Source of the DNA: Zoogloea sp. 1C4
GTDB lineage: Bacteria > Pseudomonadota > Gammaproteobacteria > Burkholderiales > Rhodocyclaceae
Length of the DNA: 64,000 nt
Direction: 5' to 3'
Assembly: GCF_009469605.1 (NCBI RefSeq)
Contig: NZ_SSXU01000007.1
Span: 186,001 to 250,000 of the forward strand
How positions within the stretch are numbered: the first letter of the stretch is position 1; every line of letters starts with the position of its first letter. The notes beneath the pieces are model-generated. The model saw only the letters and a program-made list of their open reading frames with translations. It ran no database searches and had not been told where the DNA came from. Both the position numbers and the translations under genes were made by a program. Positions 38,488 through 46,139 of the stretch are shown in pieces.

Positions 38488-39168
38488 TCAGGTGTCGGCC
38501 CACATGCGCAGCAGGTTGTGATAGGTGCCGGTGAGGGCGACGGTTTCGTCGCTTTCGCCATGGGCTTCGCGCAGGCGCATCAGGGCCATGTCCAGGTCGA
38601 ACAGCAGGCGGCGCTGTTCGTCGCTGCGCACCATGCTCTCGATCCACAGGAAGCACGCCAGCCGGTATCCCCGCGTCACCGGGGTGACCTGGTGGATGCT
38701 GGTGCCGGGGTAGAGCACCGCGTGGCCGGCGGGCAGCTTGACGCCGCGGTTGCCGTAGGTGTCCTGCACCATCAGCTCGCCGCCTTCGTATTCGTCCGGA
38801 TCGGCCAGGAAGACCGTGCACGAGACATCGGTGCGTACCCGCACGCCGTCGCCGCTGAAGCGGATCGCGTTATCCACGTGCTCGCCGTAGAAGGGCGTGT
38901 CGCCGCCGTAGCGGTTGACCCGCGGGGTGAAGATCTTCTTGGGCAGGGCGGCGGTGAGGACCAGGGGGTTGCGCTCGATGGCGCCGAGCACCGTGGCGCG
39001 GATGCTGCGTGCGGCCAGGCAGTCGTGGGGCAGCTGCTGGTTGAGCTTGACCGTGCGGGCCTGGGTGCCGGCGCTCTCGCGGCCGTCAGCCCAGGGGGCA
39101 TCGGCGAGCAGGCGGCGGGCTTCGCGGACTTCGTCGGTGGTGAGGAGGTCGGGAATCTGCAGGAGCAT
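38488..39168 (-). CDS. PKHD-type Fe(II)/2-oxoglutarate hydroxylase (PiuC/YbiX family)
   Basis: A 226-residue double-stranded beta-helix dioxygenase. The iron ligands are HVD near residue 97 and the histidine in [11 protein letters not shown] near 158, with the 2-oxoglutarate arginine in [10 protein letters not shown]. YbiX/PiuC genes are regularly paired with catecholate siderophore receptors such as Fiu/PiuA, and the same order is seen here. The natural substrate is not known for the family. The upstream gap has a heptamer-type repeat. Confidence 0.94.
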
Positions 39169-39177
39169 CGGCGTTGG

Positions 39178-39219
39178 GGGAGGTGGGGATTGGGAAATGG
39201 GTAGTGGGTAGTTGGGGGG
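39178..39219. repeat. Degenerate heptamer repeat, G-rich on the plus strand
   Basis: GGGGGAGGTGGGGATTGGGA then AATGGGTAGTGGGTAGTTGGGG, directly before the hydroxylase ATG on the coding (C-rich) strand. Confidence 0.75.
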
Positions 39220-39240
39220 CAGGGGCCCACGGCCCCTGCC
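39218..39240. terminator. Hairpin between the receptor and hydroxylase genes
   Basis: GGCAGGGGCC-CAC-GGCCCCTGCC is a ten-base perfect stem just after the receptor stop (minus strand). No T-tract follows, so partial read-through into the hydroxylase gene is likely. Confidence 0.5.
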
Positions 39241-39247
39241 GGCGCCG

Positions 39248-41527
39248 TCAGAACTTCAGGTTGGCGGTGAGGTAGAAGGTGCGGCCGAAGCCCGGCACGT
39301 AGTGGCCGGTGTAGAAGGCGTCGGCGTACAGCTTGTTGGTCACGTTGTTGAGGTTGGCCTTGAGCATCAGCTTGTCGGCGATGGCTTCGTATTCGGCCAT
39401 CAGGTCAGCCGTCACGTAGCCCTGGGAGTAGAAGCCCGGGTTGCGGTTGGGCGTGAGCTTGGTGCGGGCGTTGATGCCCACGCCGGCGCGCAGCTTCTCG
39501 GTGAACTGGTAGCTGTTCCATAGGGTGCCTTGGTGCTTGGGGATCAGCGACGGGCGCTGGCCCTGGTTCTCGTCGTTGTTGGTGGGGCTCTTCACGTCGA
39601 TCTCGGCGTCCCAGATCCAGGTGTAGGAACCGAAGATCTCCCAGCGCGGGGTGATCTTGCCGGCCACGTCCATGTCGAGGCCGGTGGCGTGGCGCTTGCC
39701 CGACAGGGTGATGATGCTGGGCACCAGCGGGTCGGTGTTGCGCTCGTTGAGCTTGACGCCACGGAACAGCGCCATGCGGGTGCTCATGGTGCGGCTGGCG
39801 TTCTCGATGCGGCCGCCCAGTTCCATGTTGATGGCCTTCTCCGGCGGCACGTCCACCGTCGAGGCGCTGTACGAGTAGGTGTCGCCCGAGGTGTTGAAGG
39901 AGGTGGCGTAGGAGAGGTGGTAGGACTCGCGCTCGCTCGGCTGGTAGAGCAGGCCCACGCGCTGGCTGGGCTTGTAGATGGCCTGCTGGTAGTGGGTGAC
40001 GGCGCCGGTGGTGAGGTTGAACTGGTCGAACTGGCCCGACATGGCGTCGTAGCGCAGGCCGGCGAGGAACTTCCAGTGGGGGATGAATTCGATCAGATCC
40101 TGGGCGTAGATGCCGCCGGCGAAGCTCTCGAACTCGGAGGTCTTGCCCGGCACGCGCAGGCTTTCGGGCACGCCCACGCCGTCGTCGGGGGTGCCAACGG
40201 TGGTGGTGGGCTTGGTAATGTTGATGCCGCCCTGGGCGGCGGTGCGGGCGCCGAATACTCGCTTCTTCTCCCACGCGAAGTCGACGCCAGCCTGGGCGTT
40301 GTGCTTCATGCCCCAGGCTTCGAACTTGCTGGACAGATCGCTCTGGGCCAGCAGGTTTTCGTAGCTCTGCATCTTGGGCTGGAAGCCACGGGTGAGCACG
40401 GTGGCGTCGCTGAAGGTGTCGAGCGTGGCGGCCACGCCGCCCGGCTGCAGGCTGGCGGCGCCCAGGCGCACGGTGCTGGCGCGCTGGTCGCGGGTGAAAT
40501 CGCCCTTGCGCACCTTGGTGACGAGCTCGGTGTCGTTGGAGAAGCGGTGGGTGTGGGTCAGCGTGCCGTAGGTGGCGGTGCCGTAGTTGCGGTCGCTGGC
40601 CATGCCGTAATAGTTTTTCGGGTCCACCGGCAGCATGGTGGTCTGGGAGACCGGAGCGCCGGCGTACTTGCGGATCCAGGGCAGGCCGTAGTTGATGCCG
40701 TTGTTGTTCTCGAGGCGGAACAGGCCGACCTCGAACTCGTCGCGCCCGCCGATGCCCCAGCGGTAGTCGGCGGCCACGCCCTGCTTGTCGAGGCTGGTGC
40801 CGGCGCCGTTGTTGTCGGCCTTGGTGCGCATGGCGTTGATGCGCAGCGCGGCGTCGTCGTCGGTCTTGATGTTGATGTCGGCCACCACGCGGTGGTAGCT
40901 GTGGCTGCCCACGGTCACGTCGATCTGGTTCTCGTCGATCAGCCGGGCCTGCTTGTTGACCTGGTTGACCGCGCCGCCGGTGGAGCCGCGGCCGAACAGC
41001 ATCGACGCGGAGCCGCGCAGCACTTCGACGCGCTCCATGTTGAAGGTGTCGCGGTCGTAGAAGCCCGGGTCGCGCATGCCGTCGATGAAGATGTCGCCCG
41101 TGGTGTTGAGCGGGAAACCACGCAGGCGGATGTCTTCCTCGCCGCCTTCGGCCGCCAGGAAGGTGACGCCGGACGTCATCTTGAGGGCTTCCTTGATGGT
41201 GTCGATCTTGCGGTCGTCCATCAGCTTTTCGGTGACCACGGTGATGGACTGGGGAATGTCGCGCAGTTCCTGCTTGCCCTTGCCGATGCGGGTGGTGGTG
41301 GTGCGCAGGCTGTCCTTGCCCTGGGGCTCGGCTTCGGCGGCGGCTTTCACGACCACCGGCTTGAGGGTCTTGGCGTCGTCGTCGGCCGCCGCGGGCGCGC
41401 CCTGGGCCCAGCCGCTCATCGAGGCAGCAAACATCAGCGCGCCCAGGGGCAGGGTGGCCGGATTGGTGTTGGGGGAAGACTGCGGTCGGGGTGCCGGCGC
41501 GGGGCGGCGGATTTTTTTGTTAGCCAT
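39248..41527 (-). CDS. TonB-dependent siderophore receptor (Fiu/PiuA-like)
   Basis: A 759-residue outer-membrane receptor for ferric catecholate-type siderophores. An N-terminal signal region (about 40 residues, ending SGWAQG) leads to a plug domain with [38 protein letters not shown] and [24 protein letters not shown]. The rest is a 22-strand barrel ending in the outer-membrane signature with C-terminal Phe (YLTANLKF). CCGGAGG precedes the ATG. A Fur-like site lies upstream, and the PKHD hydroxylase and hydroxyacid oxidase genes follow. Confidence 0.95.
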
Positions 41528-41846: not shown

Positions 41847-43954
41847 TTACCAGGTGTAGCGGGCGTTCACCCCGACCATGCCGTTACGGCCCGGGGCGGG
41901 CTCGTAGTAGCGGCCGTTGCCGTCACCGACGATCACCGAGCCGATGTAGTTGCGGTCGAACAGGTTGTCGATGCGGGCGAACTCGGTGAAGCGCCACGGG
42001 CCGGCCTTCTGCTCGGCGCTCACGCGCACGTTGGCGATTGCGTAGGACGGCGCCGGGGTGGCGGTGTTGGCATCGTTCACGTAGGTGCGGCTGCGGTAGA
42101 TGCCTTCGATGGCGGCGGTGACGCCGGGCGCGGGCTTCCAGGCCAGATCGCCGAAGGCCGAGGTGCGCGGGATGCCGGGCATGGTGTTGCCGGCATCCAC
42201 CGGGGTGGTGCTGGCAAAGCCTTCGTCGTAGATCGCCCGCAGCATGGTGAAGGCGAAGCGGCTGGTGAGGTCGCGACGCCAGGCGGTGTCGAAGGCCAGC
42301 TCGACGCCCTGACGCAGGGTCTTGCCGGCGTTCTGGTAGCTGGTGCGGCCACCGCTGGAGGCGAGGACGACCAGTTCGTCGTCGGTCTTGACCTGGAAGA
42401 GGGCGAGATTGACCCGGCTGCTGTTGCCGACCAGGGCCTTCACGCCGGTTTCCAGGTGCTCGCTTCTGGCCGGGCTGAGGCCGAAGTTGAAGCCGGTGGT
42501 GGGCGTCGCGTAGAACATTTCGTTCAGCGTCGGCGTCTCGAAGCCGCGGGCGGCGCTGGCGTAGAGATTGACCGCGGGGTTGAGCTTGTAGACCACGCCC
42601 AGCACCGGCGTGGTCTTGCTGTAGTTGCGGCTGCCGCTGTCGTCGCCGTTGATGCCGACGATGTACTTGTCGTCCACCGAGAACTTGACGGCGCTGTAGC
42701 GCAGGCCGCCGCTCACGATCCAGTCGCCACGCTGCCACTCGCTCTGGATGTAGGTGCCGGTGCTCTCGACGTTGTCCACTTCCTTGCGGCGCAGGGTGCT
42801 CTTCACGCCGCTGCGGTTGTCGTAGCCGCTGCGGTTGTCCTTGCTCACGTCGTAGTCGGTGCCGAAGGTGGTGGTCAGCTTGCCACCGCCGGCCTGGCGC
42901 ACGGCGATCCAGCGGCCGCCGACGCCGTAAAAGTCGCGGTCGAAGTCCACCACGCCGCCAGAGCCGCGGGTGATGGCGGAGGGAGACGACGGGGCGATGG
43001 CCTGGTACTGGATCACGCTGCGCTGGCCGCTGTACGCCGAGAGCTGCAGGGTGTCGGGGCCGAAGCGGCGCTCGTAGGTGACGCCGCCCTGCAGGTGGTC
43101 GATGCTCTTGCGGGTGTTGTAGGTGGTGGCCGGGGTCGGGCTGGTCCCGGTGCCCGGGTCGATGGCACGGGGGTTGTTCTTGTAGCTCGCCCAGGTGACG
43201 CCCAGCGGATCGTCCGCCCGCTGCCAGAAGCCATTGACGACGAAGGTGAGCTTGCTCACGTCGTCCGGCTTGGTGGTGATCTTGGCGAAGGCCTGCTCGC
43301 GGGTGGCGGCGCTGTGGTCGCGGTAGCCGTCGGTCTTGAGGCGGGTGGCGTCGATCACGTAGCCGAGGCCTTCGAGCTGGCCCTGGGCGTTGATCTCGGC
43401 CTTGGTGGTGCCGTAGCTGCCAGCGGCAAAGCCGCCTTCAATGCTGGGCCGGCCGGTGGGTTCGCGGGTGAACAGCTGGATCACGCCGCCGGAGTGGTTG
43501 CCGTAGATCGCCGAGTAGGGGCCGCGCAGCACTTCCATGCGCTCGGCCATGTCGAGGTTGAAGGTGGCGGCCTGGCCCTGGCCGTCGGGCATCGAGGCGG
43601 GGATGCCATCGGCGATGAGCTTCACGCCGCGCACGCCGAAGGCCGAGCGGGCGCCGAAGCCGCGGGTGGAGATCTGCAGATCCTGGGCGTAGTTCTGGCG
43701 GTTGTTGGCGATAACGCCGGGCACGGCCACGAGGGCTTCGGATGCGTTGATGCGCGGCTGGCCGGCGGTGATCTGGTCGCGGTCGAGCACGTCGATGGCG
43801 GCCGGCATGTCGAAGCTGGCTGCTTCAGCGCGGCTGCCGGTTACGACCACCGGGTTGAGGACGAGCGACGTGCTGTCGTCGGCTGCGTGGGCGATGCCGG
43901 CAAGGGCGGAAGTCAGGGCGAGGGCGATGGGGGCGAGGGTGAAACGGGGGGCAT
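41847..43954 (-). CDS. TonB-dependent receptor with a one-base frameshift at a C6 tract after the start codon
   Basis: The body is a complete receptor: TonB box-like VVVTGSR, plug with STRGFGARSAFGVRGVKLIADGI and MEVLRGPYSAIYGNHSGGVIQLFT, and a barrel ending RNGMVGVNARYTW. The signal peptide (RFTLAPIALALTSALAGIAHA) is in the same frame, but no start codon is. The ATG at 43954, with GGAGA seven bases upstream, is followed by six C residues; seven C (or four) would join it to the signal peptide. As read, ATG 43954 gives only 13 codons. This is a phase-variable OFF state, a disabled gene or a sequencing error. Ligand unknown. Confidence 0.85.
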
Positions 43955-44108
43955 TCGGTGTCTCCGTGGGCGACTGTGGCTTTTTTGCGAAACATAGCGT
44001 GCCGGCGACCGGCGCGCATCATGAAAATCGTGATATGGGCACCCTGTAACAGACGGTGCCGGGTGGTGCTCGCTATACTTCGTCGAATCCATGTTAACGA
44101 CATAAGCC

Positions 44109-46139
44109 ATGCCTCCGCTTTGCCGGACCTTGAACGCCGCCCGCCGCGCCGCCGCGTTTCGCGTCGCGATGCTGTGGCTGTTGCTGGGCTGCGGGCAGGC
44201 AGTGTGGGCGCAGACCTCCGTGACCGTGCAGCTGCGCTGGCATCACGCCTTCCAGTTTGCGGGCTATTACGCGGCGGTCGAGAAGGGCTACTACAAGGAG
44301 GCCGGGCTGGCGGTGCAGCTCAAGGATGCGCGGCCGGGGCTGGACGTGGTGGACGAGGTGGTGTCCGGGCGAGCCGATTTTGGCATCGGCAACAGCGGCC
44401 TGCTGATCGACCGCCTGGCCGGCAAGCCGGTGGTGGTGCTGGCCACGATCTTCCAACATTCGCCGCTGGTGCTGCTGACCCGCCGGGAGCAGGGGGTGCC
44501 GTCCGTCCATGATCTGATCGGCAGGCGGGTGATGCTGGAGCCCGGCGCCGACGAGCTGCTCGCCTACCTGCGCAAGGAGCGCATCCCGGTCGAGCGGCTC
44601 AAGTTCGTGGAGCACACCTTCAACCCCCAGTCGCTCATCAACGGCGAGGTGGACGCGATCAGCGCCTATTCCTCCAACGAGCCGTATTTCCTTGAGGCGG
44701 CGGGGATCGACTATCAGGTCTACACGCCCCGATCGGCGGGGATCGACTTCTACGGCGACAACCTGTTCACCACCGAAGGCCTGCTCCGCCGCAGCCCCGA
44801 GACCGTCCAGGCCTTTCGCGAGGCGAGCCTGCGCGGCTGGCGCTACGCCCTCGACCATCCGGACGAGATCGCCCGGCTGATCCACACCCGCTACGAGAGC
44901 AAGCTGCCCCTCGAGTTCTTCCTCTTCGAGGCGCACCAGACGATTCCGCTGGTGCGGCCTGATCTGGTGGATGTGGGCTACATGAGCACCGGGCGCTGGA
45001 AGCACATCGCCGAGGTTTATGCCGAGATCGGCATGCTGCCCCGGGGTTTCGACTTCAAGGGGTTTCTCTACGAGCCCGTGCGGGATGACCTCAACGGCCT
45101 GCGCACCTACCTGGGCGCGGCGCTGGGCGTCATCGGGCTGATCACCCTGGTGGCGGCCTACATCCACCACATCAACCGGCGCCTGCACCGCAGCGTGGCC
45201 GAAACCCGCCGGGCGGCCGAACGGCTGGAAGCCAGCGAAGAGAAATACCGGCTCCTCACCGAGACGATGAAGGACGTGGTGTGGACGGTGGACACCGACA
45301 CCCTGCGCTTCATCTACGTGAGCCCGTCGGTCGAGCGCCTGCGCGGCTACACCGCCGACGAGGCCCTCGCGATGCCCTTCGAGGCCACTTTCCTGCCCCG
45401 CGACGCCGACGAGATGCGCGCCCTGGTGCGCCAGCGGGCGCGCAGCTTCCTCGACAACCCCGACGGCCAGCCGCGCTTCTACACCGACGAGGTGGAGCAG
45501 CCCCGCAAGGACGGCAGCACGGTGTGGATCGAGGTGGTCACCACCTACTGCCGCAACCCGCGTACAGACAAGGTCGAGCTGCACGGGGTGAGCCGCGACA
45601 TCTCCGAACGGCGGGCCAGCCAGGCGCGCATCGCTTATATGGCCGAGCACGACATGCTCACCGATCTGCCCAACCGCACGCTGGTCACCGACCGTCTGCG
45701 CCAGGCGCTGGCGGCCGCCCGTCGCAACCGGCACCGGGTGGCGCTGCTGTACATCGACCTGGACCGCTTCAAGCCGGTGAACGACGCCTACGGCCACGCG
45801 GTGGGCGATCAGCTGCTGCGCGAGGCAGCGGTGCGGATGCGCCTGTGCGTGCGTGAATCCGACACCGTCGGGCGCTTTGGTGGCGACGAGTTCGTGGTGC
45901 TCCTGCCCCACATCGATTCCATCCACGACGCCGGACTGGTGGCCGAGAAGATCCGCGTGGCCCTCGCCGAATCCTTCCAGATCGACGGCCTGCGGCTCGA
46001 TGTGTCGTCCAGCATCGGCATCGCCGTGTATCCCGAGCACGGCGCCGACGACGTGAGCCTGCTGCTCCACGCCGATGGCGCCATGTACGCCGCCAAGCAC
46101 GGGGGCCGCAATCGGGTGACGGTGTTTGGCGAAGACTGA
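44109..46139 (+). CDS. Diguanylate cyclase with NMT1/THI5-like periplasmic sensor and PAS domain
   Basis: A 676-residue membrane signalling protein. Signal peptide to about residue 35; residues 40-270 are an NMT1/THI5-like solute-binding domain (VQLRWHHAFQFAGYYAAVEKGYYKEAGL, ADFGIGNSGLLIDRLAG); TM at about 338-356; PAS at about 370-495 (FIYVSPSVERLRGYT); GGDEF domain from 505 with FGGDEF at 590-595. An RxxD inhibitory site (RESD, 582-585) sits five residues before it. NMT1-like domains often bind thiamine pyrimidine precursors, so such a ligand is a fair guess. It makes c-di-GMP. Divergent from the frameshifted receptor. Confidence 0.93.
   Translation: MPPLCRTLNAARRAAAFRVAMLWLLLGCGQAVWAQTSVTVQLRWHHAFQFAGYYAAVEKGYYKEAGLAVQLKDARPGLDVVDEVVSGRADFGIGNSGLLIDRLAGKPVVVLATIFQHSPLVLLTRREQGVPSVHDLIGRRVMLEPGADELLAYLRKERIPVERLKFVEHTFNPQSLINGEVDAISAYSSNEPYFLEAAGIDYQVYTPRSAGIDFYGDNLFTTEGLLRRSPETVQAFREASLRGWRYALDHPDEIARLIHTRYESKLPLEFFLFEAHQTIPLVRPDLVDVGYMSTGRWKHIAEVYAEIGMLPRGFDFKGFLYEPVRDDLNGLRTYLGAALGVIGLITLVAAYIHHINRRLHRSVAETRRAAERLEASEEKYRLLTETMKDVVWTVDTDTLRFIYVSPSVERLRGYTADEALAMPFEATFLPRDADEMRALVRQRARSFLDNPDGQPRFYTDEVEQPRKDGSTVWIEVVTTYCRNPRTDKVELHGVSRDISERRASQARIAYMAEHDMLTDLPNRTLVTDRLRQALAAARRNRHRVALLYIDLDRFKPVNDAYGHAVGDQLLREAAVRMRLCVRESDTVGRFGGDEFVVLLPHIDSIHDAGLVAEKIRVALAESFQIDGLRLDVSSSIGIAVYPEHGADDVSLLLHADGAMYAAKHGGRNRVTVFGED

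What the first reader, a model, noticed from the sequence alone, without database searches (positions are those of the whole stretch)
41847..43960. TonB-dependent receptor switched out of frame at a C6 tract directly after the start codon
A good ribosome binding site (GGAGA) and ATG at 43954 are followed by six C, but the signal peptide and entire receptor are in the frame reached only with seven (or four) C. No other start exists before the signal peptide. Homopolymer tracts at the start of outer-membrane receptor genes are a classic site of slipped-strand phase variation, and this would be an OFF state. Six bases is short for high-rate switching, so a fixed mutation or a sequencing error must be kept in mind.
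Basis: seen in the sequence. Interest (0 to 1): 0.75.

Follow-up and report, generated by a model that had tools for sequence, protein, structure and literature searches.

The report
PQQ receptor gene broken at start
In a Zoogloea-like sludge bacterium the gene for an outer-membrane receptor that resembles the importer of the cofactor PQQ is out of frame right after its start codon, at a run of C; this is most likely a recent ordinary mutation (or a sequencing error), not an evolved on/off switch.

Summary
On the minus strand a good ribosome-binding site and ATG (43954) are followed by six C, and the receptor (41847-43946) lies in another frame with no ATG/GTG/TTG before its signal peptide. 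It is a PqqU (E. coli YncD) homologue: plug and barrel are present, and all 9 PQQ-contact positions checked, of 12 published, are kept, with F for Y99. In 18 of 18 other copies of the genus with a visible start, an ATG is in frame. The nearest species has C7. The tract is not conserved: 4 of 18 have C7, one an in-frame C6, 13 runs of 2-4. It is shorter than the G9 cut-off used for Neisseria. Of 79 genes matched to the nearest species, only this one shows a frame shift that leaves it startless. No second lesion lies in about 700 codons. Best reading: a recent slippage mutation in a selected gene, tolerable because pqqC is present. A draft error remains possible; an evolved switch is unlikely. 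Side finding: a mosaic stretch in the barrel.

The parts
43961..43965 (-). ribosome-binding site GGAGA, 6 nt before the ATG
   Evidence: sequence; same sequence in the sister species G014, GAGA in the 17 copies with a homologous N-terminus
43952..43954 (-). ATG start codon, at the place of the in-frame ATG of the relatives
43946..43951 (-). C6 tract, codons 2-3 of the ATG frame; C7 in the sister species
43913..43954 (-). 13-residue out-of-frame reading from the ATG, ends TGA
43884..43946 (-). signal-peptide-like stretch RFTLAPIALALTSALAGIAHA in the receptor frame (by eye; no signal-peptide program was run)
   Evidence: aligned starts in relatives
41847..43946 (-). PqqU-like TonB-dependent receptor, otherwise intact frame
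   Evidence: Pfam Plug and barrel; chains 6v81 and 9c4o, E 2.5e-152 and 2.7e-151; PQQ-contact residues
43848..43850 (-). first ATG/GTG/TTG in the receptor frame (GTG), after the signal-peptide-like stretch
42693..42992 (-). mosaic stretch (residues 321-420): nt identity to sister G014 0.55-0.77 per 20-residue bin, to G019/G020 up to 0.90
39248..41527 (-). neighbouring TonB-dependent siderophore receptor (best model Fiu, above the TIGR01783 cut-off), with a start

Best explanation
This is a pqqU homologue (TonB-dependent importer of pyrroloquinoline quinone, PQQ) that recently lost its reading frame by a one-base contraction of a C7 run at codons 2-3. Shown: the frame break, the intact remainder, the in-frame start in relatives, the kept PQQ-contact residues. 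Inferred: that the ancestor had C7 (from the sister species), that replication slippage was the cause, and that no receptor reaches the outer membrane in cells of this genotype. The loss is probably affordable because the genome carries pqqC of PQQ synthesis (other pqq genes were not searched). It could have been favoured by escape from a phage, since E. coli PqqU is a phage receptor, but that is only an analogy. The C run is taken as a by-product of two Pro codons in a GC-rich gene, not a selected switch.
For: Frame break and lack of another start. In-frame ATG in 18 of 18 other copies and C7 in the nearest species. Of 79 sister genes matched in this genome (29,687 aa) 4 showed a split frame; in 3 the split touches only the N-terminal 22-63 residues of the sister's reading and the gene here has a start; pqqU is the one left without (the other 75 were tested for frame, not for start). 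No stop in about 700 codons: in simulation P(no stop) is 0.80 at neutral distance 0.005, 0.42 at 0.02, 0.07 at 0.06 (500 runs each, substitutions only), so a loss would be recent. Plug region nearly unchanged against G014 (98% aa in residues 51-150). Tract not conserved. 7 of 7 other receptors examined, of 14 others in the genome, keep a start. pqqC present and PQQ-dependent dehydrogenase models above cut-off here. PqqU/YncD as phage receptor: PMC12124388 (abstract, passages, sections 7, 8, 10 seen), PMC8594841 (passages seen).
Against: No reads, sister isolates or proteome, so a draft error is not excluded. Only 7 G/C runs of 6 or more in the sister could be compared without a substitution: 6 equal, the seventh is this tract, so the error test is weak for long C runs; 5 of 13 comparable A/T runs of 6 or more differ by a gap (coding and non-coding not separated). 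The protein has changed faster than its sister's (75 against 34 derived residues), which could be relaxed constraint, although the excess sits in the barrel.
Confidence: 0.52

Rival explanations
1. Sequencing or assembly error: the cell has an intact pqqU; the draft lost one C.
For: A single one-base difference in the longest C run at the start of the gene, in a 140-contig draft; the remainder of the gene looks selected.
Against: One startless frame shift among 79 genes compared; 54 of 58 comparable G/C runs of length 5 and 6 of 6 of length 6 agree with the sister genome: no general G/C homopolymer error, though few long runs could be tested.
Confidence: 0.33
2. Phase variation: the C6/C7 tract is a slow contingency switch that turns PqqU off, for instance against phages, and back on.
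For: Surface receptor, tract directly after the start codon, intact gene behind it; the E. coli homologue is used by phages (PMC12124388, PMC8594841); mosaic barrel segment suggesting pressure on exposed parts; CCC CCC in 6 of 12 Pro-Pro copies, above independent codon choice; PMC2831843 proposes short tracts near gene starts as a general inactivation device (passages).
Against: Runs of only 2-4 in 13 of 18 other copies, and all 4 C7 copies and the single other C6 copy are in frame; 6-7 bases is under the G9 cut-off of Neisseria phasome work; in the 99 genomes of PMC2831843 poly(A)/poly(T), not poly(C)/poly(G), tracts were over-represented. No held paper has both PqqU and phase variation; one has Zoogloea and phase variation, and it is on Pantoea.
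Confidence: 0.1
3. Recoding: -1 ribosomal slippage or transcript slippage on CCCCCC yields some full-length receptor from the C6 gene.
For: The run CCC CCC would permit a one-base backward slip into the receptor frame (by inspection).
Against: None of the 18 other copies needs it: all are in frame. The slip would have to occur at codon 3; no stimulating element was searched for.
Confidence: 0.04

Closest known systems
PqqU / YncD of Escherichia coli (PDB 6v81; 9c4o, named Pyrroloquinoline quinone transporter)
   Same: Match over nearly the full length; Q84, Q121, K274, R304, Q308, Q310, R365, R536 kept, F at Y99, which the authors accept (PMC12124388)
   Different: This copy is out of frame at its start; 632 bits against the NCBIfam equivalog cut-off of 1200; this genome has pqqC, while none of the 14 control genomes rings for it
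Phase-variable TonB-dependent receptors of Neisseria (HmbR, HpuAB; search listing and abstract start of PMC3786947)
   Same: Outer-membrane receptor put out of frame at a G/C homopolymer
   Different: Tract of 6-7, not conserved in relatives, no second state seen in the species
Ordinary recent frameshift pseudogene
   Same: One disabling one-base difference in a homopolymer, remainder open
   Different: No difference found; an error in the draft would look the same

Membership tests
PqqU (PQQ importer) | TonB plug and barrel domains | tested here: met
   Pfam PF07715 and PF00593 above cut-off; number of strands not tested
PqqU (PQQ importer) | Signature Y/F/W99, R304, R365 (E. coli numbering) used by Munder et al. 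2025 | tested here: met
   F, R, R here and in 18 of 18 other copies aligned (positions counted by hand; PMC12124388)
PqqU (PQQ importer) | NCBIfam NF041535 equivalog cut-off (1200 bits) | tested here: not met
   632 bits over residues 34-696; best of 23 models listed. So PqqU by the published residue signature, not by NCBI's equivalog cut-off
PqqU (PQQ importer) | PQQ binding and import | not testable with these tools
   needs an assay
SSR phase-variable gene | Tract at or over the cut-off of phasome work (G9 in Neisseria) | tested here: not met
   C6 here, C7 in sister; cut-off in PMC5953494
SSR phase-variable gene | Tract kept in relatives | tested here: not met
   C7 in 4, in-frame C6 in 1, 2-4 in 13 of 18 other copies
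SSR phase-variable gene | ON and OFF lengths within a species or culture | not testable with these tools
   The genome search holds one genome per species; no reads
Decayed pseudogene | Several independent lesions or loss of constraint along the gene | tested here: not met
   open frame of 723 codons, conserved plug; but faster amino-acid change in the barrel

The most novel reading that the evidence does not exclude
A PQQ receptor that is also a phage entry point is held in a slow on/off balance in Zoogloea by a short C tract after its start codon, while exposed parts of its barrel are exchanged between species: a contingency locus in a free-living, floc-forming sludge bacterium acting on a cofactor importer.
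Probability: 0.08. Interest if true: 0.55.

Novelty: new member of a known kind. Interest (0 to 1): 0.22.

Why it matters
If the base loss is real, automatic annotation may call this gene a pseudogene or start it without a signal peptide, and a PQQ-uptake prediction for this species would be wrong. It would also be a natural pqqU-null genotype in a genus that has pqqC and PQQ-enzyme genes. As an evolved switch it would matter more, but the evidence leans against that.

Tried and rejected
Evolved phase variation: not the main reading, because the run is only 2-4 in 13 of 18 relatives and every C7 copy is in frame.

Old pseudogene: rejected because there is no second lesion and the plug is conserved.

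Error-prone assembly: tested with the sister genome. One search compared few genes and used antisense reading frames; its apparent three-frame gene at C118:257.5-260 kb reads as an antisense ORF (judged from the alignment). (coding-frame segmentation) marked 44 of 110 same-strand switches in this genome as suspicious, many of them at ordinary gene junctions, and its output was cut; not used. One search listed 107 non-triplet gaps inside ORF picks, many in antisense picks; not sorted further. (genes filtered by codon score, both directions) is the one relied on: 4 splits of 79 in this genome, 6 of 69 in the sister. It cannot see shifts that move fewer than 10 residues out of frame.

Start codons of other receptors: one search read wrong frames, and read the wrong strand for the minus-strand receptors; both were discarded. 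One search is correct (7 other receptors of 14). One of them (L006) has an in-frame C6 run at codons 6-8.

Relaxed selection as cause of faster amino-acid change: 75 against 34 derived residues. Against single outgroups p was below 0.003 for 7 of 8 and 0.08 for G017; no difference at four-fold sites. The excess lies in the barrel, where the copy partly resembles G019/G020, so exchange or diversification of that part is preferred; the donor was not identified.

Promoter scan: none found; 2 terminator-like sites against 2.2 expected.

Full report
Observation. On the minus strand GGAGA (43965-43961) and ATG (43954-43952) are followed by six C (43951-43946). The ATG frame ends after 13 residues. 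The receptor lies in the frame that is open from 44018 to 41847, 723 codons without a stop. Its first ATG/GTG/TTG is GTG 43850, behind the signal-peptide-like stretch.

What the gene is. The frame carries the Plug and the beta-barrel domain of TonB-dependent receptors. Its best NCBIfam model is PqqU, 632 bits, under that model's cut-off of 1200. Its two matches among PDB chains at E below 1e-20 are YncD (6v81) and a chain named pyrroloquinoline quinone transporter (9c4o). Munder et al. 2025 (PMC12124388; abstract, passages and sections 7, 8, 10 seen) define PqqU by Y/F/W99, R304 and R365 and name 12 PQQ-contact residues. I checked nine, counting positions by hand on the alignment: F at 99, and Q84, Q121, K274, R304, Q308, Q310, R365, R536 kept. 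All nine are the same in the 18 other copies aligned. By that signature it is a PqqU.

The organism. Of 23 named loci found with the protein, the 7 nearest are Zoogloea metagenome-assembled genomes; the other 16 are Duganella and relatives.

Relatives. Of 22 other genomes of the genus, 18 have a copy whose start can be read (61-83% identity); G016 has a piece cut by a contig end; G004, G006 and G007 gave only weak matches. In 18 of 18 an ATG is in frame. In 17 the N-terminus is recognisably the same, behind a GAGA-containing site; G008 differs there. The nearest, G014, has C7. C7 occurs in G014, G011, G012 and G013. G002 has C6 and is in frame because the next codon differs. The other 13 have runs of 2-4. 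CCC makes up 37% of 5,536 Pro codons in 272 gene picks of this genome. Among the 12 copies, this one included, with Pro-Pro at positions 2-3, the second Pro is CCC in 12 and both are CCC in 6. So the run may be locally favoured, but it is not a conserved feature.

Error or mutation. 98.6 kb of this genome was aligned to the sister G014 at 92.4% identity. Of 79 sister genes found in this genome, four showed a split frame. Three of these touch only the N-terminal part of genes that have a start here; the fourth is pqqU. In the reverse direction 6 of 69 showed a split: five near the N-terminus and one, C118:237984-239231, inside the gene, where the frame is whole here. G/C runs of the sister without substitution: length 5, 54 equal and 4 with a gap; length 6, 6 equal; length 7, one, which is this tract. 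In the other direction one more 6-run of this genome lies at an 8-base gap. Of the sister's A/T runs of 6 or more, 8 are equal and 5 differ by a gap; coding and non-coding were not separated. The draft is not generally frameshift-prone, but long C runs are too few for a strong test. Reads were not available.

Age. There is no second lesion. Under a substitution-only simulation, the chance of no stop is 0.80 at neutral distance 0.005, 0.62 at 0.01, 0.42 at 0.02, 0.17 at 0.04 and 0.07 at 0.06 (500 runs each). dN/dS to the sister is 0.40 (0.118/0.293). To the other species it is 0.35-0.48 for this copy and 0.25-0.42 for the sister, leaving out the distant G008 (0.61 and 0.53). The copy has 75 derived residues against 34 in the sister, with no difference at four-fold sites. 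The excess lies in residues 250-450 (46 of 75). In residues 321-420 the nucleotide identity to the sister falls to 0.55-0.77 per 20-residue bin, and G019 or G020 is the closest other in four of those five bins. Residues 51-150, in the plug, stay at 98%. This is not what uniform decay gives; exchange or diversification of the barrel part while the gene was in use fits better.

Consequence. Translation from the ATG gives 13 residues; no signal peptide can be made in frame. A PqqU-less cell would probably still have its own PQQ: pqqC is present in this genome and in 21 of the 22 others of the genus, and in 0 of 14 control genomes. The other synthesis genes were not searched. A PQQ-dependent dehydrogenase model matches above its cut-off in 21 of 23 genomes, this one included, and in 0 of 14 controls. 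In four relatives (G015, G019, G020, G021) pqqC lies about 7.2 kb from pqqU on one contig (coordinates), which supports the PQQ link; in this genome they are on different contigs. E. coli PqqU/YncD is a receptor of Drexlerviridae phages (PMC8594841 passages; PMC12124388 section 8), so loss could be selected by phage. That is an analogy; nothing here tests it.

Against a switch. The minimum tract in the Neisseria phasome study is G9 (PMC5953494 passage). A survey of 99 genomes found poly(A)/(T) tracts over-represented and placed near gene starts, but poly(C)/(G) not over-represented; the same paper does argue that such short tracts serve gene inactivation in general (PMC2831843 passages). Searches for PqqU with phase variation found no paper, and for Zoogloea with phase variation one, on Pantoea (only the open library is covered). 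Of 14 other receptors in the genome, the 7 examined have a start.

Verdict. The gene is an otherwise intact PqqU homologue out of frame at its start. Recent mutation about 0.5, draft error about a third, evolved switch about a tenth, recoding a few percent.

Noticed in passing
window 42693-42992 (minus strand): Mosaic stretch in the pqqU barrel: sharply less like the sister species and closer to G019/G020, while the checked PQQ-contact residues stay; suggests exchange of exposed parts among Zoogloea.
   Followed up: partly
G015:C65, G019:C6, G020:C31, G021:C2: pqqC lies about 7.2 kb from pqqU on one contig in four relatives, but on a different contig in the window genome.
   Followed up: no
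window 38488-41527: Downstream on the same strand: a Fiu-like siderophore receptor followed by a YbiX/PiuC-type Fe2+-dependent dioxygenase (the name PiuC is recalled).
   Followed up: no
window 44109-46139: Divergent neighbour on the other strand: weak SsuA-family substrate-binding match, PAS and GGDEF in one protein.
   Followed up: no
G000:C64:65032 against G014 (L137): A7 here against A8 in the sister near the N-terminus of a 956-codon gene: here the frame is continuous, in the sister it is split.
   Followed up: partly
L006 (G000:C96, another TonB receptor): A second receptor has a C6 run at codons 6-8, in frame.
   Followed up: no
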